Shown here: positions 13,803-59,904 of the stretch, piece after piece | How the letters are laid out: the number at the start of each line of letters is the position of its first letter | Position numbering within the stretch: position 1 is the stretch's first letter | Virus record (IMG/VR): IMGVR_UViG_3300037083_000054 | Span: 1-64,000 of that record | Length of the DNA: 64,000 bases | Strand: one strand, 5' to 3' | Source of the DNA: a virus | Program-made: the position numbers and the translations under genes | The notes under the pieces: generated by a model | The model's database searches: none | The model's input: only the letters and a program-made list of their open reading frames with translations | Told to the model about the DNA's origin: nothing

Positions 13803-15209
13803 ATGCCCACGAATTTTGGATGGACTTATTCTGCCACAAGAATTGACGATGCCAAAGGCCGCATTGCTGCTGCTGGTTTTCAGTTCTCTTATGCCGCTGA
13901 TCGTCCGTCGATGTTGGGCTATTGGAAGCGACGACAAGCGGCGGGGATTCACTGGATTGCGGCCCAAGATGATGAGATGAAACTGAATGGAAAATGGCGT
14001 GATCCGAACAATCAGGCACGCGGAACCTGCCATCCAGCGGGCGTTATGATTTTGATGGCGGACAAAACCGAGAAGCCCATCCAGGAAGTTGTGATCGGCG
14101 ATCGCGTTTTGAGTCATACCGACGAATCACGTCGAGTGTCTGATATTGGCGTGAGAAAATATAGCGGCGATTTACTTTCGTTTGATGCGGTTGAGTCTGG
14201 CAGATGCTGCATTGTGACTCCAGATCATTTAATCGCTCACTTTCCGGGGCTTGCCGGAGCATGGCTTCGTCCTGAATTTGCTCCGGCCTACAAAATCGAG
14301 ACCGGCAATCGAATCGGCACGTTAACAGCCAATAAATCGGAATCAAATCTGAGTCGATCGTTTGATCGAGTAAAAATGGCAAGCTTCGCGAGAGTGACGG
14401 GATGCAGTGTCCATAGTATCGAAGTGGAAGCGGATCACACTTACTATGCCAATGGAATGCTTGTTCATAATTGCGTGGGCCAAGGCTCGTCGCGTGCCAT
14501 TGAAGATGTGATTAACTCGCGAATCGTCGATGGCGAGATTATGGGCGAATCGCAATTGGTTGCGTTTGAGCCTATGTACGGTTTTGAGCGAAATACGCGA
14601 TGGCAAAAGACGCATCCATTTGGTTGTCGATGCGGCAATTGTCCAGATGGTTTGGCTGGAGCCGATGCCGCCGCATTTTATTCACAGCATGGATATCTGA
14701 AACGCGATGTCTACGGGTCTATTGATCTCAGCCAACCGCAAGAACATTTCGCCATTGACTGGAACAACTCTGGCGTTCCGGGTGATGTACTGAACGCATC
14801 GACAGGACATCAGGTTCAATGCCATTCCTCAGACTCGTGGGATGAATATGCGGATGCCATCGCCTCAAAGGATTGGGGACACATTTGCCTTCCAAAAGTC
14901 TTCGGCTATTCGCGAGTGATTGTCGGTCCCTATGGAACGGTTGAGCCGGATACCGATGCGGGCCATGATACGGAGTGCGTAGGATGCTGCACATTACCGA
15001 GCAACGAGACGGCCTTCCTGATTCAAAATTCGTGGGGACTGGGTGTCAAATATCCGCCATCAATTCAAGTGCTCAACGGCAATGGAGCGACTGTCAGCAA
15101 ACAAATGCGTCCTGGCTCCTACGCTGTTCGACAGAGCGTATTGGAAGGATTAGGCAATGCCGCTGAACGCATCAGTTGCGACATTCAAGGATCGAGTGTT
15201 TTTCGATAG
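13803..15209 (+). CDS. papain-like cysteine peptidase interrupted by an intein
   Basis: 468 residues before splicing, 320 after. The intein spans residues 76-223. Joining the flanks gives RGT-CVGQGSSRAIE, the nucleophile region of a papain-type (C1A-like) peptidase, with catalytic Cys224 being the +1 extein residue. The other catalytic residues are visible as AGHDTEC (His388) and IQNSWG (Asn409), the NSWG box of papain. Predicted to cleave peptide bonds; in this block of membrane and lipoprotein genes it could serve lysis, head maturation or host-protein cleavage. Activity would depend on splicing. Confidence 0.85.
   Translation: MPTNFGWTYSATRIDDAKGRIAAAGFQFSYAADRPSMLGYWKRRQAAGIHWIAAQDDEMKLNGKWRDPNNQARGTCHPAGVMILMADKTEKPIQEVVIGDRVLSHTDESRRVSDIGVRKYSGDLLSFDAVESGRCCIVTPDHLIAHFPGLAGAWLRPEFAPAYKIETGNRIGTLTANKSESNLSRSFDRVKMASFARVTGCSVHSIEVEADHTYYANGMLVHNCVGQGSSRAIEDVINSRIVDGEIMGESQLVAFEPMYGFERNTRWQKTHPFGCRCGNCPDGLAGADAAAFYSQHGYLKRDVYGSIDLSQPQEHFAIDWNNSGVPGDVLNASTGHQVQCHSSDSWDEYADAIASKDWGHICLPKVFGYSRVIVGPYGTVEPDTDAGHDTECVGCCTLPSNETAFLIQNSWGLGVKYPPSIQVLNGNGATVSKQMRPGSYAVRQSVLEGLGNAAERISCDIQGSSVFR
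14028..14471 (+). other. mini-intein (148 aa) in the peptidase
   Basis: Starts with Cys76 (CHPAGVMILMADKTEKPIQE...GDRV), has the block B TPDH motif (Thr139...His142), and ends YYANGMLVHN with the His-Asn pair before Cys224. Splicing blocks are present but there is no room for a homing endonuclease. Standard Cys/Asn/+1 Cys chemistry should be possible. Confidence 0.88.
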
Positions 15210-29269: not shown

Positions 29270-30577
29270 TTACTGTGATGCCAATTCTTTTTCCATTTCC
29301 TCAATTTCAAGATCTGCGACCCAAGCGTCGCGAGCGTAAGACACCGGTTTTGTTGGTTCGATCGTTTTGTTGTCGCCCCAGAAAATTGGCTCGATCCCAA
29401 GTTCGCATTGTTCTTGAATCAGGCAACAGAGATTGTGAGCGATCAGCTTGCACAAAACCTCATTGGTCATGGCGACCAAGTTTTTGCTGCGAACAGCGTC
29501 GCCGAACTTTCTTTTGACCATGCTGAACGTACTTTCGACGTTTGATCGACGATGATAGTGAGCGAGGTATTCATCCTTTTTGAATTCGAAATAGTGCAGC
29601 ATCTTCTTGAATAGACCACCGACTGATCCAGTCGCATTGTCCTTGAACGCGATGAATGCTATCCCACCGAGATTAGCGACAGTTTCGAAGTTCTCCAGGC
29701 TACTGTATGCCTTGTCCGCCGAGACTTCTTCAATCATGAACGTCTTGCCAGTCTCTTTCACGAGTGGTTCAAACTGCGGGCAATCTGCCGAGTTCTGATC
29801 CATGATCCGAACTGCTGTCACGCAATTCGTTTTGATTCCGCAGGCGATGTGACATTTGATCCAGACGTGCTTCAGTTTCGTCACCCCATACTTCGCGTCA
29901 TACCAGCGTTCGAACTTATTTGTCGAGAATCCGCTGCTGTCGATCGCAAATCGAGTCTCGACCACTTTCAATGGTGCGGCACTCTTGCCGACCAGGGCCG
30001 TGAGAAATGGCGTCAACGCGGGGTTCTCCATGAATGCTGTCGTTTTCACGCCAGGAATCGGTCGCGAGATAAATCCTCGTGCTTGTGCTTCTCGCAAGTC
30101 GGACGAAAACCGTCGACTGCTGAGCGTGGTATAGACCTTGAAGACACAGGCGAAAATCGAATCACGAACTGTGTGCGGTTTCGGCCCTTTTCTCCAGAGT
30201 TCGCGTTCTGGTTCTTTTAATCCCCTGCACAGATCGTGCAGCAATTCCTGTACTCGGTCCTTTTCCATGCTCTGAGCCTTATTGTAAGCCGCCCAGTTTT
30301 GCTTGTAGGTTGTTTTCTTGGTCAGCGTGATGCTCTCGGTCTCTGTCACGCTCCCATCGGGATTAAACTCGCGTTTGGCAGTAATTTCGACGGCATATTG
30401 ATGCTTGCACTTGAAACCGTTCTCCGAATGGTCCGGACATGTGCAGGTCTTTTTGACAGGATCGACGCGGTAAATCGTATTGGCATTTGATTGTGAAGGA
30501 ACCAGCCAAACATTCGACATTCGGTTCAATTTGCACACGGCAGCGATGATCAATCCGCGTTGTTCTCTGGCATCCAT
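29270..30577 (-). CDS. SWIM-finger DDE transposase 1 (435 aa)
   Basis: N-terminal SWIM zinc finger at about 50-75 (CTCPDHSENGFKCKHQYAVE, CxCxnCxH). The catalytic triad candidates are FAIDSSGFS (Asp), VSADKAYSS (Asp) and the conserved end RSNVESTFSMVKRKFGD (Glu), as in IS4/IS5-type DDE_Tnp_1 enzymes. It would bind the terminal repeats and catalyse cut-and-paste. The start MDAREQRGLI is preceded by a short hairpin and an antisense RNA region, so expression is probably tightly controlled. Confidence 0.88.
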   Translation of the reverse strand: MDAREQRGLIIAAVCKLNRMSNVWLVPSQSNANTIYRVDPVKKTCTCPDHSENGFKCKHQYAVEITAKREFNPDGSVTETESITLTKKTTYKQNWAAYNKAQSMEKDRVQELLHDLCRGLKEPERELWRKGPKPHTVRDSIFACVFKVYTTLSSRRFSSDLREAQARGFISRPIPGVKTTAFMENPALTPFLTALVGKSAAPLKVVETRFAIDSSGFSTNKFERWYDAKYGVTKLKHVWIKCHIACGIKTNCVTAVRIMDQNSADCPQFEPLVKETGKTFMIEEVSADKAYSSLENFETVANLGGIAFIAFKDNATGSVGGLFKKMLHYFEFKKDEYLAHYHRRSNVESTFSMVKRKFGDAVRSKNLVAMTNEVLCKLIAHNLCCLIQEQCELGIEPIFWGDNKTIEPTKPVSYARDAWVADLEIEEMEKELASQ

Positions 30578-43890: not shown

Positions 43891-45852
43891 CTATCGTCGG
43901 CTTCCTGGAATATTGTCGCGACCGCCTCGAACCCGACGTTTTGGCTGATTGAACTTATTGCTCTCGATTTGAACGCTGCCTTTTGAGTGCTGATGGGCCA
44001 TGGTTGACGGCGTCAGACCTCGCGTGCTGGCTTCGGAGAAAAGCCCGTATCGCATGCAATCGACCGCGTCATCGTCAATTTTGACGGGATCAGCACGGAC
44101 GGCTGGCGAGTTCACGTTGGTTGTCAGTTGTTTGTGTCGATGGTAATTCACAAAGTTCCGGCAGAGATTCGGACACTTCTCGCGGACGACTTTCAGGCGA
44201 GATTCGACCGGGAGATCGGGAGCCAGTTGAAATGTCGGCTTCAGTAGATAGCGAACATATTCGATCCCCTCCTCGACATTGTCCTTTTTCGCAAGCTGGA
44301 GACTTGGAGCGTCGTATTCGCCATCAGGGAATTCTTCGCTGACCGTGTACTCGTTGACTTTGCCGAGCGTTCGAACCGCATCCAAATCATGGTCGCACCA
44401 TGTCACGCCGTAGTTTGGATTCCCTTCCGGCCACCAATGCATATCCGCGATTTCCTTCCAATGGTCAATCACGGTCTTCGAGGCATCGTTCGAATAGTAT
44501 TCGTCGTAGATCCACACGCGACCTCGTTGATCGAAGCAGAAGAATAAGCAGACGAAAGCGTGATCAATCGAGAATCCGAAGTCGATCGCTCGCACATGGA
44601 ATAGACCTGATGGCGGCTCCCATCCTTCCGGTGTGCAGTGAATGTTCGGGTTCCATTCGGGATAGACCGCTCCTTCGAAGTTGCCCCATAAGCCTTGTTC
44701 GCGGACAGGCTTCATTGAGTCGGGGACCATGCCGAAAAACTGGTGATACCATTGTTCTGAGATATGGCCCGCTTCCATTGCACAGCGGGTATTGCAGCGG
44801 AAGATGGCCGAGTCGGCGGGGATGTCGCCTTTTTCTTCCATTTCTCGCAATGGCATTGAAAGCGATGGGTCGACCGGCGTGAACTCGACAAGCTTGTTGC
44901 CGGTGAATGAATACTCGCGACAACCTCGCATGACTTCTTCGAGAATGCCCCACGGGAACTGTTCAACGAACAGGAAGCCGCCGATTGATTCGGCCTGCAT
45001 ACTCGCTCGGCCTTGCTCGTAAGACTTGAAGCAAAGCAGCCAGTTCTTGCCGGGTCGATTTGGCCATGACTTCAATGGAACGCTGTAGGGCCAATCCATG
45101 TTTGGCTTGTACCACTGGATACGTGGCCAGTCGATGTCGTTCGGATGGATGTGCCCTTTCTGATGAAGCTTTTCTTTCCAACATGCATTCATCACCATTG
45201 AATAGCTTTGGCTGATGAGCCAAAACGGCGTGTCTCGGCGTGGTGGTGGAGTCTTGTTGATAAACCGCATCATTTTCGCCAGACCGAGCGTCGTCGTCCC
45301 TGAATTGTGGTGATAGATGCCTTCCATCCAGTAGTTTTCATAGATCGGGACGTGAAAGTCCCAATAAACATCCCTACGAACAAAGCAATGAGCTTCGACG
45401 TAAGCGACTTTACCATCGGCCTGAATTAGTCTCACATCGCCATCCGCAACCACATCCCGCATCGTCATCCAGCCATATTCGGTGAAGACTCGATGATCGA
45501 GAGTGACGCAAAAAACATTTCCGTCTGAATCGCCAGAAAGCAGAAACTCGCAGAGATCTTCCGTTCCACAGGCATGCGGCTGTTCGGCTAATGCGATGAC
45601 GCGATTGCCAGTGAATTCGTCGATCGACCAGACGTGGAATGGGCCGGGGATCGAGTCTATGCGGCGAGAGACGTCCAGAATCGGATCATAGATTTCTTGC
45701 TCGGCAGCCGCGCATCCGTTGCCGCCAAGGCAGTACTGGATACCAGATAATTCAGACTCATAGAACGCCGTCTGCATATCATTTCGTTCAGGCTGATCAG
45801 GCCGAGGCTTGAAATGAAAGCATTCGAGTTCTTGAATTCTGGAGAGCGACAT
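43891..45852 (-). CDS. terminase large subunit with intein in the P-loop
   Basis: 653 residues before splicing, 516 after. Flanks join to YCLGGNG-SGTTTLGLAKM, the Walker A site of the packaging ATPase; notably the usual Lys of GK(T/S) is replaced by Thr. A deviant lysine position, as known in other terminases, may serve. The RNase H-like nuclease is visible at the C-terminus: RAIDFGFSIDHAF, WCDHDLDAV and IDDDAVDCMRYGL. It cuts and pumps phage DNA into heads. Portal and small terminase candidates are elsewhere in the window. Confidence 0.92.
   Translation of the reverse strand: MSLSRIQELECFHFKPRPDQPERNDMQTAFYESELSGIQYCLGGNGCAAAEQEIYDPILDVSRRIDSIPGPFHVWSIDEFTGNRVIALAEQPHACGTEDLCEFLLSGDSDGNVFCVTLDHRVFTEYGWMTMRDVVADGDVRLIQADGKVAYVEAHCFVRRDVYWDFHVPIYENYWMEGIYHHNSGTTTLGLAKMMRFINKTPPPRRDTPFWLISQSYSMVMNACWKEKLHQKGHIHPNDIDWPRIQWYKPNMDWPYSVPLKSWPNRPGKNWLLCFKSYEQGRASMQAESIGGFLFVEQFPWGILEEVMRGCREYSFTGNKLVEFTPVDPSLSMPLREMEEKGDIPADSAIFRCNTRCAMEAGHISEQWYHQFFGMVPDSMKPVREQGLWGNFEGAVYPEWNPNIHCTPEGWEPPSGLFHVRAIDFGFSIDHAFVCLFFCFDQRGRVWIYDEYYSNDASKTVIDHWKEIADMHWWPEGNPNYGVTWCDHDLDAVRTLGKVNEYTVSEEFPDGEYDAPSLQLAKKDNVEEGIEYVRYLLKPTFQLAPDLPVESRLKVVREKCPNLCRNFVNYHRHKQLTTNVNSPAVRADPVKIDDDAVDCMRYGLFSEASTRGLTPSTMAHQHSKGSVQIESNKFNQPKRRVRGGRDNIPGSRR
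45304..45714 (-). other. mini-intein (137 aa) in TerL
   Basis: Starts at Cys47 (CAAAEQEIYDPILDVSRRI), carries block B as VTLDHRVF (Thr117...His120) with GWMTMRDV, and ends EGIYHHN before Ser184. No homing endonuclease domain fits. +1 residue is Ser. It interrupts the P-loop between GGNG and SGTTT. Confidence 0.88.
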
Positions 45853-49220: not shown

Positions 49221-50438
49221 TTACTTCGCGAATGCAGGTTCGATACCTAGTTCGTAAAACTCACTGATTAGGCAGCAGATGTTATGTGCCAAAACCTTAC
49301 ACAGAACTTCGTTTTTCATGGCGATTTCGGTCTTGCTGCGAACTGAATCTCCGAACTTGCGTTTTACCATTGAGAATGTGGATTCAATGTTACTCCGCTT
49401 GTGATACGACTGAAGAAACTCCTCACGGTACAAGCTGAAGAAATGAAATGCCTTGCCAAACAATCCACCGATGCCGCCTGTAGTTCCCGAACGAAACGTG
49501 ATGTATGGCTCGGCCCCGAGAGCATTGATGGCTCGGAAGTTCGATTCGCTCGCATACTGAGTGTCGGCACTCACTTCCTTAACGTCGAAATTCTTTGCGG
49601 TTGTCTGCATGAGTGCTGGCAGAAGTGGTGAATCATTCGCGTTGCGGTCAAGGATTTCCACAGCCGTGATGACATTCGTTTTCACCCCGCACACGGCATG
49701 CAGCTTGACCCAAGTATGCTCAGTCCTGACTTTTCCATATTTATGATCGAACCATCTAATGAACTTCGACGATGTGAAACCTGATGAATCAACCGCAAAA
49801 TCGGTTTCAACGCTTTTGAGCGGCAAACTGGATGTCTGGATCAATTGAACAAGATGTTCCGTCATTTCTTCATCTTCTAGCGCAGTGCTGATCGCATTGA
49901 AATGCGGTGTTCGTTCGATATACCCCTTGTACTTCGCATCGTCCAGATCGCACATAAATCTTCTCTGGCTGACAGTGCTGTAAACCTTGAAACAGGCCAT
50001 GAATATGCAGTCAGACATGGGAATTCGTGGGCGACCGCGTCCAGGCGTCGCTAAGGGTGCCTTGACGTTGTCGCACAGCGATCGCAATAGCGACTGAAAG
50101 TGATCTTTCTCGCTCGTCTGCGCCTGATTGTATTCCGCCCACATTTGAGGATATGTCGGACGTTTGACGGTCGTAGAAATAGTCACTTCCTCAGTCGTTG
50201 TCTCAGTGCCGTCCGCGTTCTGCTCGCGTTTGATGACATATCGGACGGCGTAAATGTGCTTGCACTCTTGACCACGTTTTTCGAAGTCCGGGCAATTGCA
50301 ATAGGGCGTTTGCTCATCTGCCACGACGGTGTATTTGCCTTCGCCTGTCTGACTGGGGACGATCCACACTTGTCCTTTTTGCACAATTCGACTTCCGGCA
50401 GCGATCGTAGCACCACGTTGTTCTCTTGCTTCGCACAT
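49221..50438 (-). CDS. SWIM-finger DDE transposase 2 (405 aa)
   Basis: Start MCEAREQRGATI at 50438; the frame is open far upstream but that part is leader and operator. SWIM finger YCNCPDFEKRGQECKHIYAV, acidic residues in FAVDSSGFTSSKF, VSADTQYAS and RSNIESTFSMVKRKFGDS. Clear homologue of transposase 1, with similar motif order and end (LCKVLAHNICCLI). Expression probably controlled by the RHH operator and the antisense RNA. Confidence 0.88.
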   Translation of the reverse strand: MCEAREQRGATIAAGSRIVQKGQVWIVPSQTGEGKYTVVADEQTPYCNCPDFEKRGQECKHIYAVRYVIKREQNADGTETTTEEVTISTTVKRPTYPQMWAEYNQAQTSEKDHFQSLLRSLCDNVKAPLATPGRGRPRIPMSDCIFMACFKVYSTVSQRRFMCDLDDAKYKGYIERTPHFNAISTALEDEEMTEHLVQLIQTSSLPLKSVETDFAVDSSGFTSSKFIRWFDHKYGKVRTEHTWVKLHAVCGVKTNVITAVEILDRNANDSPLLPALMQTTAKNFDVKEVSADTQYASESNFRAINALGAEPYITFRSGTTGGIGGLFGKAFHFFSLYREEFLQSYHKRSNIESTFSMVKRKFGDSVRSKTEIAMKNEVLCKVLAHNICCLISEFYELGIEPAFAK

Positions 50439-50443
50439 GACTT

Positions 50444-50560
50444 GCCTCTTTTTCTGTTGAGGCATTCCCGATAGAATCGCAATTGCTATGTCGCGGATTG
50501 GCGGGAACGCCAGTTTGTGATTCGCCCCGGTTTCGATTCGCAGTCGATTCCGGGTTTTCC
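50444..50560 (+). ncRNA. predicted antisense RNA over transposase 2 leader
   Basis: Hairpin GGCATTCCCG...AATC with GATTGGCGGGAACGCC (50461-50511), then a terminator hairpin CCCGG/CCGGG and TTTT (50526-50558). Same arrangement as at 30582 and 52322. Confidence 0.65.
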
Positions 50561-50574
50561 TTACGCATAGTATT

Positions 50575-50640
50575 GTACGGACATAATTATCGGAAGTCAA
50601 TAAGAAACCATTGACAAAAATAATTTTGTCCGTACACTTC
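50575..50640. promoter_or_regulatory. divergent promoters and RHH operator, element 2
   Basis: Arms GTACGGACA (50575-50583) and TGTCCGTAC (50627-50635). Plus strand: -35 TTGACA (50611-50616), 16 bases, -10 TACACT, giving a nearly leaderless RHH mRNA (ATG 50645). Minus strand: -35 TTGACT, 17 bases, -10 TACAAT for the transposase. Each -10 overlaps an arm, so one protein could shut off both. Confidence 0.7.
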
Positions 50641-50644
50641 CAGC

Positions 50645-50902
50645 ATGCACGAAAAACGACCAGGAAGACCGCCAAAGTCAGGCGTCGCATTCGGAGTTCG
50701 CATCGAGATTCGAGCGACGGACGAAGAGCGAGACCGCATCGACAAGGCGGCGAGCATTGCCGGTAAAGAGCGATCCGAGTGGATTCGTAGCACGCTGCAA
50801 TTAGCGGCGAATCAGACAATTGAAGAACATGATTCACAACCAGTGTTGAAAATGACGAAGAGATCTGTAAAATCAAAGAAGACCGGCCATGCTGGAACAT
50901 GA
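50645..50902 (+). CDS. ribbon-helix-helix regulator (85 aa)
   Basis: Basic start RPGRPPKSG, then the RHH pattern VRIEIRATDEERDRIDKAAS and SEWIRSTLQLAAN, as in CopG/MetJ-like proteins. Probably represses itself and transposase 2 through the inverted-repeat operator. No Shine-Dalgarno, consistent with leaderless translation. Similar to 52552 and 63806. Confidence 0.78.
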   Translation: MHEKRPGRPPKSGVAFGVRIEIRATDEERDRIDKAASIAGKERSEWIRSTLQLAANQTIEEHDSQPVLKMTKRSVKSKKTGHAGT

Positions 50903-51154
50903 CCGGCTTCGAGAGAAAAACGCCAATCTTCGGGATTGGCACCGATGGCATCCTGCCATCACCTGCTATCCGTCGAGGAACAGCCTGTCATTGCGGCAAA
51001 TTGCCGTCTTGTCAGATCGAACCAAAACGGAAGCAGGCCATGAAGCCATATGGCTTGCATGGCAGTCCTCCTGAAAACCGAGCGATTGGATTATCTTGGG
51101 TTCTAAGTCAAAGTACCCAATCCTCGGTCACTGAGGCACCACTATCCACAGTGG

Positions 51155-58215: not shown

Positions 58216-59904
58216 ATGCATGAAATGGATCTGGCCTCGAACCCGTATCTGTCTGGAATCAAAGTGCTCCAACGGAATTCCGATGGCGGAAACGATTGGG
58301 TCGCACCAAATTCGGGTCGATATCCGGTTTCGCACGTCACTACGTTTATGAATCAATACACCTCTCTCGCCCATGTTTACAGGGATTATGATGAAAGTTT
58401 GATCGATAGTCGTGAAAATGCCCGCTTCATGATGTTAAATTTGGGCATAAGGGAATGCCTCGACTCGAGGCGTCGTAGTGTCGCCCTTCTCAATTACCAC
58501 ATTGCTCCTGAAGACGACAAATCACCGCATCAAATCGAGTTTTGCCAACTCCTCGAAAAAGTCGTGAACAGGATCAAGAATTTTCAACAATATCGCGAGA
58601 GCATGCAGTTCGGAATTTGGTTCGGAAAACAAGGTTGCTGGCATCGCTTTTTGCCGCAAGTGTTTAATGGGAAAAGCATTTATGTGCCAAAAGGCCTCCA
58701 TCCAGACGACAATGGTTGGCGACCGCTTCATGGCGACAAGATTGTGTTTCGTCAATCGCGTCCTCTTATGGTCCCCGGTGCGTATGAAGGACAAATGGGG
58801 GTCCGTGTTGGATGGCTAGGCCATCAGCCTGGACAGGTTGTTAACCAACGATGGCGACTCGAAGCGACCGATTACGGTCTTGCCTATTTCCTTAATCCTG
58901 CCGAACGTCGATTGATGCTCATACATAAGCATCACCCATATGATGCCTCATTCGAAGACGGCTTACGAGCCGGGTCAATTCATGGCCTCGGAATTCGTTC
59001 GATTGTTTATTGGGAGTGGAAGCAAGCGACAGAAATTCAAGCGTTTCTTGTGGAATATCTTGAACGAATGGCGGGCGGCATTCAGATTTGGAAGTATCCA
59101 ATGGGGAATCGCCAAGCCGAAGCGAAAGCTCGGGAGGCGGCTGAGAACTATAACAGCGGACACGAACACATCATGCTTGTCCCAGTGCCCATCGGTGAAG
59201 CGGGCAATCAGTATGGTGTCGATGTCGTCGAGCCTGGATTCCAAGGCATTGAGACGATCCAGCACTTGATCAAGGATTACTTCAACGATCGCGTCAAGCG
59301 GTACATCTTGGGCCAGAAACTGAGTTCCGAAGCCGAAGCAACGGGCATGGGTTCCGGCGTCGCCGAGCTGCATATGGACACGCTGTTGCAGATCATCAAG
59401 AGCGATGCGACGGCCCATGAAGAAACGCTGACCGACGAATTGCTCGGGGCGATTATCAAGGTCAATGTCGACAAAAAGGTCTGGCATGATCCGGGATTCC
59501 GACCGCGATTCGTGTGCGAGACGGAAGAATCGGACATTGACAAGAAGTCGGAAGTCGTCTTGGCGTTCATGGGGCAGGGGATTAAGTTCCGCCTGCCTGA
59601 TATTTACGATTTGGTAGGGATGGCTCAGCCAGGACCGGACGACGAAGTCAATCCTGATGCTCCGCAGGGAGCGAAACCGGGTGAAGCGGGCTTGCCAAAA
59701 CCCGATGCGAAAACGAAAGAATCGGGTGATCCAAAGTCGCCTTCCGAGCGTTCTGAAAGCATAAAGGACGGCGAGGACTCGACCGCTCGTGACGATAATG
59801 CGGCGAATAACGGACATGCCGCGTCGCATATCCAAAGGTATAGTCGTCGGTTGCCGTTCTCCGTTCCGTCTGGTTGGAAACGACGACCGAAAACAGGGAA
59901 ATAA
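58216..59904 (+). CDS. portal protein, DUF935 (Mu gp29-like)
   Basis: 562 residues. KRYILGQKLSSEAEATGMGS, GVAELHMDTLLQIIKSDATA and the preceding IEYLE-like segment YWEWKQATEIQAFLVEYLERMA are hallmarks of DUF935 portals. The C-terminal 90 residues are low complexity and charged. The portal forms the dodecameric DNA gate to which TerL docks. The 280-bp upstream gap has no other gene; ATG 58225 is an alternative start. Confidence 0.92.
   Translation: MHEMDLASNPYLSGIKVLQRNSDGGNDWVAPNSGRYPVSHVTTFMNQYTSLAHVYRDYDESLIDSRENARFMMLNLGIRECLDSRRRSVALLNYHIAPEDDKSPHQIEFCQLLEKVVNRIKNFQQYRESMQFGIWFGKQGCWHRFLPQVFNGKSIYVPKGLHPDDNGWRPLHGDKIVFRQSRPLMVPGAYEGQMGVRVGWLGHQPGQVVNQRWRLEATDYGLAYFLNPAERRLMLIHKHHPYDASFEDGLRAGSIHGLGIRSIVYWEWKQATEIQAFLVEYLERMAGGIQIWKYPMGNRQAEAKAREAAENYNSGHEHIMLVPVPIGEAGNQYGVDVVEPGFQGIETIQHLIKDYFNDRVKRYILGQKLSSEAEATGMGSGVAELHMDTLLQIIKSDATAHEETLTDELLGAIIKVNVDKKVWHDPGFRPRFVCETEESDIDKKSEVVLAFMGQGIKFRLPDIYDLVGMAQPGPDDEVNPDAPQGAKPGEAGLPKPDAKTKESGDPKSPSERSESIKDGEDSTARDDNAANNGHAASHIQRYSRRLPFSVPSGWKRRPKTGK

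What the first reader, a model, noticed from the sequence alone, without database searches (positions are those of the whole stretch)
43891..45852. TerL with intein in the P-loop and no Walker A lysine
Intein Cys47-Asn183 splits GGNG|SGTTT. The rejoined P-loop lacks the usual GK(T/S) lysine. Two mini-inteins in one phage, both in active sites, suggest selection for these sites or common regulation of splicing.
Basis: seen in the sequence. Interest (0 to 1): 0.7.

Follow-up and report, generated by a model that had tools for sequence, protein, structure and literature searches.

The report
Lysine-free phage packaging motor with intein
This phage DNA-packaging enzyme belongs to a family in which the lysine thought essential for gripping ATP is replaced by threonine, and in this phage the same ATP-binding loop is also split by a self-splicing protein insert, so it can test how ATP motors work without that lysine.

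Summary
The minus-strand ORF 43891-45852 is a terminase large subunit (TerL) with a 137-aa mini-intein (Cys47-Asn183) splitting GGNG|SGTTT, and the rejoined P-loop has no lysine. In 31 non-redundant TerLs of one clade, 27 of them with an uninterrupted P-loop, the lysine position is Thr, written with all four ACN codons, and no Lys or Arg lies nearby. Other family members keep GKT. The whole family also lacks the Walker B Asp and P-loop Arg but keeps the catalytic Glu, and has gained an acid at the D6E Asn169 position and invariant basic residues R27, K66, K102, R186. ATPase-domain dN/dS is 0.01-0.20, so the domain is not decaying. The lysine loss is independent of the intein, which also interrupts a GKT relative. 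The P-loop intein is a recurrent allele found in five TerLs. The phage's two other inteins (148 aa; 147 aa at 109.5 kb) sit in active-site-like motifs but are not close kin, so shared regulation has no support. Best reading: a working packaging ATPase with a rebuilt, lysine-free site, a new variant of TerL. Activity is inferred, not shown.

The parts
43891..45852 (-). terL gene, intein-containing precursor of 653 aa (516 aa after splicing)
   Evidence: ORF; PHROG TerL families 5653 and 2; fold of relative L020 matches D6E TerL, Z 22.9
45715..45852 (-). N-extein, 46 aa: PRPD motif, adenine-side Gln27, first half of P-loop
45715..45726 (-). Walker A first half, GGNG (residues 43-46)
45304..45714 (-). 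Mini-intein, 137 aa (Cys47 to Asn183), no homing endonuclease; block B TLDH at 45493-45504, C-terminal YHHN at 45304-45315
   Evidence: 2in0 match, intein fold, same-site homologues in L057, L058, L060, L067
45289..45303 (-). Walker A second half, SGTTT (residues 184-188); Thr186 sits where the Lys is expected
45274..45276 (-). Lys193 (K66 of L020): invariant in the family, Glu in all 5 outgroup TerLs
45169..45171 (-). Lys228 (K102 of L020): invariant in the family, at the end of helix 91-104 of the model
44953..44976 (-). Walker B FLFVEQFP: Asp replaced by Val296, catalytic Glu297 kept, next Glu replaced by Gln298
44914..44928 (-). RGCRE loop after the Walker B helix; Arg312 (R186 of L020) invariant, same loop as the D6E trans-arginine R158
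44866..44892 (-). Coupling motif region LVEFTPVDP; Glu323 (E197 of L020) acidic in 40 of 40 family members, Thr in outgroup, aligned with D6E Asn169
44044..44598 (-). RNase H-like nuclease domain core with Asp424, Asp487 and Asp598

Best explanation
The gene makes a TerL precursor whose ATP-binding loop is interrupted by a mini-intein. The intein excises itself (inferred from intact motifs), restoring GGNGSGTTT. The mature enzyme belongs to a clade of phage TerLs, with members mostly in Planctomycetota bins where a host is named, in which the Walker A lysine is replaced by threonine. The enzyme most likely still binds and hydrolyses ATP. Backbone amides of the Gly-rich loop and Thr60 (the Mg-binding Thr of canonical P-loops) hold the phosphates and Mg, and the invariant Glu171 remains the catalytic base. 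An acidic residue in the coupling strand (Glu197, at the D6E Asn169 position) takes over the metal-side role of the lost Walker B Asp. The missing positive charge comes from family-invariant basic residues, in cis (K66 or R27) or from the neighbouring subunit (K102 or R186). Shown: sequence, conservation, order of losses on the tree, fold, purifying selection. Inferred: splicing, ATPase activity and the particular compensating residues.
For: Thr in 31 of 31 clade members with codons ACG, ACT, ACC and ACA, so it is not an error or a single-codon recoding event. 19 of the 31 do not have the exact GGNGSGTT string that one scan pattern required, so they came in through the other pattern. ATPase-domain dN/dS was 0.009-0.20 across six GT pairs, similar to or lower than in the nuclease domain. 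Glu171 and Thr199 are invariant in all 40 family members. K66, K102, R186, R27 and acidic 197 are invariant in all 40 and absent from the 5 outgroup TerLs. The L020 model is a full-length TerL fold. D6E Asn169 contacts both the P-loop Lys and an inner-shell Mg water (PMC5727402), and it aligns with the acidic 197. Only one TerL match was found in the 122,834-bp record. Other Planctomycetota TerLs keep GK[ST].
Against: No biochemical data. No coordinates were available, so no distance from K66, K102, R186 or E197 to the phosphates could be measured. The candidate basic residues are also present in the GKT members, so none appeared together with the lysine loss, and no well-aligned column co-varied cleanly with K/T. 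In other TerLs the Lys is essential: HK97 K60A abolishes packaging (PMC9410871).
Confidence: 0.6

Rival explanations
1. The ATPase domain has lost catalysis and is kept only as a scaffold or nucleotide sensor; another protein powers packaging.
For: P-loop Arg, Walker A Lys, Walker B Asp and the second acidic residue are all substituted, a pattern typical of pseudo-enzymes.
Against: Catalytic Glu171 and coupling Thr199 are invariant and Thr60 nearly so. dN/dS in the ATPase domain is very low. Some members nested among the GT members carry GKT. No second TerL was found in the record, though the record may be incomplete.
Confidence: 0.15
2. The lysine is simply relocated along the chain, as in lambda gpA or Mu gp28, giving a known deviant Walker A.
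For: Relocated lysines are known in TerLs (PMC7363723; PMC9410871).
Against: No Lys or Arg occurs at any position 48-65 in any of the 31 GT sequences, so there is no relocated lysine within or next to the P-loop. Only more distant candidates such as K66 or R27 remain.
Confidence: 0.15
3. The intein is a post-translational switch that keeps TerL inactive until a signal late in infection, and the inteins of this phage are regulated together.
For: Three inteins in one phage at active-site-like motifs; splicing is needed to rebuild the P-loop. A mycobacteriophage study argues that an intein would block the TerL ring (PMC5050341).
Against: Close relatives L020 and L031 lack it. The TerL intein is not detectably related to the papain-like one (22%, z 1.4). 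Sporadic distribution at conserved motifs is typical of mobile inteins or their remnants.
Confidence: 0.1
4. Sequencing error or recoding hides a normal GK.
For: None beyond the single window sequence.
Against: 31 sequences with four different Thr codons.
Confidence: 0.01

Closest known systems
Phage D6E large terminase (PDB 5OE8-5OEE; PMC5727402)
   Same: Best full-length fold match of relative L020 (Z 22.9); same order of ATPase and RNase H-like nuclease domains; catalytic Glu kept
   Different: D6E has P-loop Arg44, Lys47 and Walker B Asp142; this clade has Gly/Ala, Thr and Val/Ser/Ile/Thr/Cys, and Glu in place of Asn169
Deviant Walker A terminases (lambda gpA, Mu gp28; Mitchell and Rao 2004, as cited in PMC7363723)
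   Same: Classical Walker A Lys position not Lys
   Different: Those have a Lys elsewhere in or near the P-loop; here none in residues 48-65 in 31 sequences
HK97 TerL (PMC9410871)
   Same: Shows that TerLs can shift which basic residue does catalytic work (extra Lys57)
   Different: Retains and requires Lys60 at the classical position
Mycobacteriophage TerL1-a/b P-loop inteins (PMC5050341)
   Same: Inteins inside the TerL Walker A motif
   Different: TerL1-a lies between the Lys and Thr (b is one residue away); here the insertion is GGN[GA]|S, three residues upstream of the TerL1-a site
Mtu RecA mini-intein (PDB 2IN0)
   Same: Similar length (137 vs 139 aa), fold, Cys1, block B His, terminal His-Asn
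   Different: Host protein and insertion site; about 24% identity in the structural match

Membership tests
Phage terminase large subunit (TerL) | ATPase plus RNase H-like nuclease two-domain fold | tested here: met
   L020 model: D6E TerL Z 22.9, Sf6 gp2 17.7, HK97 17.0; PHROG TerL hits
Phage terminase large subunit (TerL) | Walker A with GK[ST] lysine | tested here: not met
   Thr in 31 of 31 GT-clade members; GKT kept in 9 family members. TerL is assigned here by fold and homology, not by this residue
Phage terminase large subunit (TerL) | Walker B Asp | tested here: not met
   V, I, S, T or C in GT, S/T in GK, N in basal members
Phage terminase large subunit (TerL) | Catalytic Glu after Walker B and T-P coupling motif | tested here: met
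   E171 and T199 in 40 of 40
Phage terminase large subunit (TerL) | Nuclease acidic triad | tested here: met
   D299 and D465 invariant, D365 in 39 of 40; window D424, D487, D598
Phage terminase large subunit (TerL) | ATP hydrolysis and DNA translocation | not testable with these tools
   Needs purified protein
Deviant Walker A with relocated lysine (lambda/Mu type) | Lys or Arg elsewhere within the P-loop | tested here: not met
   None in columns 48-65 of 31 sequences
Class 1 intein | Cys1, block B TxxH, C-terminal His-Asn, nucleophilic +1 residue | tested here: met
   C47, T117-H120, H182-N183, S184
Class 1 intein | Hint/intein fold | tested here: met
   pLDDT 94.6 and Foldseek hits to inteins
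Class 1 intein | Splicing activity | not testable with these tools
   Needs expression
TerL1-a intein allele | Insertion between Walker A Lys and Thr | tested here: not met
   Insertion is between positions 4 and 5 of the motif (site definition from PMC5050341)

The most novel reading that the evidence does not exclude
A whole lineage of DNA-packaging motors works with a rebuilt ATPase centre lacking the Walker A lysine, the P-loop arginine and the Walker B aspartate. The charge is supplied by other residues, possibly from the neighbouring subunit, so that the site is complete only in the assembled ring.
Probability: 0.5. Interest if true: 0.75.

Novelty: new variant of a known kind. Interest (0 to 1): 0.6.

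Why it matters
The Walker A lysine is regarded as near-indispensable in P-loop ATPases, and changing it is the standard way to kill one. A conserved family in which some lineages lost it while relatives keep GKT, and in which the Walker B Asp was lost earlier, gives a natural stepwise series for asking what the lysine does and what can replace it. Because GKT and GTT members are close relatives, the question can be tested directly by swapping one residue. The intein result shows that insertion into the P-loop and lysine loss are separate events.

Tried and rejected
Scanning viral contigs with the intein-bearing protein alone found nothing; a degenerate DNA pattern for the rejoined P-loop worked, though many of its hits were glycine-rich non-terminases. 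Sequencing error was rejected. A relocated lysine inside the P-loop was rejected. A search for one residue that changes together with K/T found no clean compensating residue. Host-wide loss was rejected: other Planctomycetota TerLs keep GK[ST]. Window TerL as a decaying copy was considered: it has 6 of 74 changes at near-invariant columns, second highest of 36, and a long branch, but an intact frame and intact motifs. Pfam found no family at E up to 1 for the window TerL and none for the second intein's host with the intein taken out. The 2004 deviant Walker A paper was not held. Atomic coordinates of the models were not available, so active-site distances could not be measured.

Full report
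Observation. The minus-strand ORF 43891-45852 encodes 653 aa. PHROG profiles name it a terminase large subunit. Residues 47-183 match the Mtu RecA mini-intein (2in0, E 0.0013). An AlphaFold2 model of the 137-aa segment, built with four same-site homologues, has pLDDT 94.6, and Foldseek's best matches are DnaB, RecA and DnaE inteins. Cys1, block B TLDH, C-terminal HHN and +1 Ser are all present. Joining the exteins gives GGNGSGTTT, with ACG at the lysine position.

Relatives. A degenerate DNA pattern for the rejoined P-loop in IMG/VR gave eight TerL loci with the uninterrupted motif and no lysine. Their alignment with the window extein was used for wider scans, which brought 57 loci, five of them from genome assemblies (Thermogutta, Pirellulales and another Planctomycetota bin, one labelled Saprospiraceae, and one distant Methylobacter hit). 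Without near-copies and fragments the set is 31 GT members (window included), 5 GK members, 4 basal GK members and 5 outgroup TerLs. One scan pattern contained GGNGSGTT and favours GT members, but the other (LEFKSYxQ type) does not, and 19 of the 31 GT members have Ala at position 4 or 5 of the motif and so could not match the first pattern. The GT/GK ratio should still not be read as a natural frequency.

Active-site residues (L020 numbering). P-loop Arg at position 56: Arg or Lys in outgroup, Gly or Ala in the whole family. Position 59: Lys in outgroup, basal and GK members, Thr in all 31 GT. Walker B Asp 170: Asp in outgroup, Asn in basal, Ser/Thr in GK, Val/Ile/Ser/Thr/Cys in GT. Glu171: invariant. 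Position 172: Glu in outgroup, mostly Glu in basal, Gln in GK and GT. Position 197: Thr in outgroup, Asp in basal, Glu in GK and GT. Position 66: Glu in outgroup, Lys in all 40 family members. R27, K102 and R186 are invariant in the family and absent from the outgroup. No Lys or Arg occurs anywhere in columns 48-65 of any GT member.

Tree. With the classical TerLs as outgroup, basal members branch first, then the GK pair L050/L060, then the GT members, with three GK members (L061, L063, L065) nested among GT (support 100/99 for the group that holds them). The label needs two changes, so either the lysine was lost once and regained once or it was lost more than once. In both cases the Walker B Asp was lost before the lysine.

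Function is under selection. dN/dS in the ATPase domain ranges from 0.009 to 0.20 in six GT pairs, similar to or below the nuclease domain. Thr59 is written with all four ACN codons. Only one TerL match was found in the record that holds the window. Other Planctomycetota TerLs found by the same profile have ordinary P-loops such as GARFGKS or NRGGGKT.

Structure. The L020 model (pLDDT 85.1) is a TerL over its full length; the best match is D6E TerL, Z 22.9, then the P74-26 ATPase domain, P22 nuclease domain, Sf6 and HK97. The high overall rmsd to D6E probably reflects domain orientation (my reading). Sequence alignment to D6E puts T59 on K47, G56 on R44, V170 on D142, E171 on E143 and E197 on N169, and places R186 two residues from the R158 column, in the same loop. 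In D6E, N169 bonds to the P-loop Lys in apo and ADP states and to a Mg-bound water with ATP-gamma-S, and R158 is a trans-arginine finger (PMC5727402). This is the basis for proposing that E197 took over a metal-side role and that R186 or K102 may act from the neighbouring subunit. These assignments are inference.

The intein. The same insertion point, GGN[GA]|S, is occupied in L057 (164 aa), L058 (136), L060 (134), L067 (325) and the window (137). The window intein is 43%, 36% and 38% identical to those of L057, L058 and L060 (z 16.6-17.1) and 26% to that of L067 (z 5.9), consistent with one allele. L060 has it in a GGNG|SGKT loop, so intein and lysine loss are independent. Two other TerL intein sites exist in the family: after DDH[SC] in the nuclease domain (L041, L055) and after ENDFV in L067. 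Thirteen of the 31 GT members have Ala at the +1 position and would lack the nucleophile needed to host this intein. Intein sites published for mycobacteriophage TerL are different (PMC5050341).

Other inteins of this phage. ORF 13803-15209 has a 148-aa intein ending LVHN before CVGQG, a papain-like catalytic motif by eye; Pfam recognises Hint and intein families weakly in the insert but gives no family for the host. At about 109.5 kb, outside the window, a 147-aa intein splits a radical SAM motif so that the third cluster Cys becomes the +1 residue (CNAKCPW|C); the host without the insert is a clear Radical_SAM plus SPASM protein. The TerL intein is not detectably related to the papain-like one and only weakly to the radical SAM one. 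This agrees with the general habit of inteins to sit in conserved motifs and gives no evidence for shared control.

Verdict. The sequence claim is confirmed and extends to a clade. The P-loop intein is a new site of a known kind of element. The lysine-free, Asp-free but selected ATPase centre is the part of real interest; whether and how it hydrolyses ATP is untested.

Noticed in passing
window 13803-15209 (+): A second mini-intein (148 aa, CHPAGV...MLVHN) interrupts a protein with a papain-like CVGQG motif so that the presumed catalytic Cys is the +1 residue; no Pfam family was found for the host.
   Followed up: partly
G000:C1 about 109.4-110.8 kb (locus L086:1246-2670): A third intein (147 aa) splits the CxxxCxxC motif of a radical SAM/SPASM protein; the third Cys of the motif is the +1 residue.
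   Followed up: partly
window 29270-30577 (-) and 49221-50951 (-): Two related transposases (DDE_Tnp_1 with a SWIM zinc finger) lie on either side of the region that holds terL; both are on the minus strand.
   Followed up: no
L041:3923-4870 and L055:3980-4360: A second TerL intein site in the nuclease active-site motif (DDH[SC]|CDALRY), 316 and 127 aa; not at the P-loop.
   Followed up: partly
L067:2612-3586 and L067:4379-5419: One TerL carries two inteins, 325 aa in the P-loop and 347 aa in the nuclease domain.
   Followed up: partly
window 43891-45852 (-), TerL columns E148, W222, I270, W300, R438, W439 in L020 numbering: The window TerL departs from near-invariant columns at six places (E148C, W222S, I270V, W300F, R438H, W439R) and sits on a long branch.
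   Followed up: partly
window 43891-45852 (-) and 58216-59904 (+): terL is on the opposite strand from the portal gene and about 12 kb away, an unusual arrangement for a packaging module.
   Followed up: no
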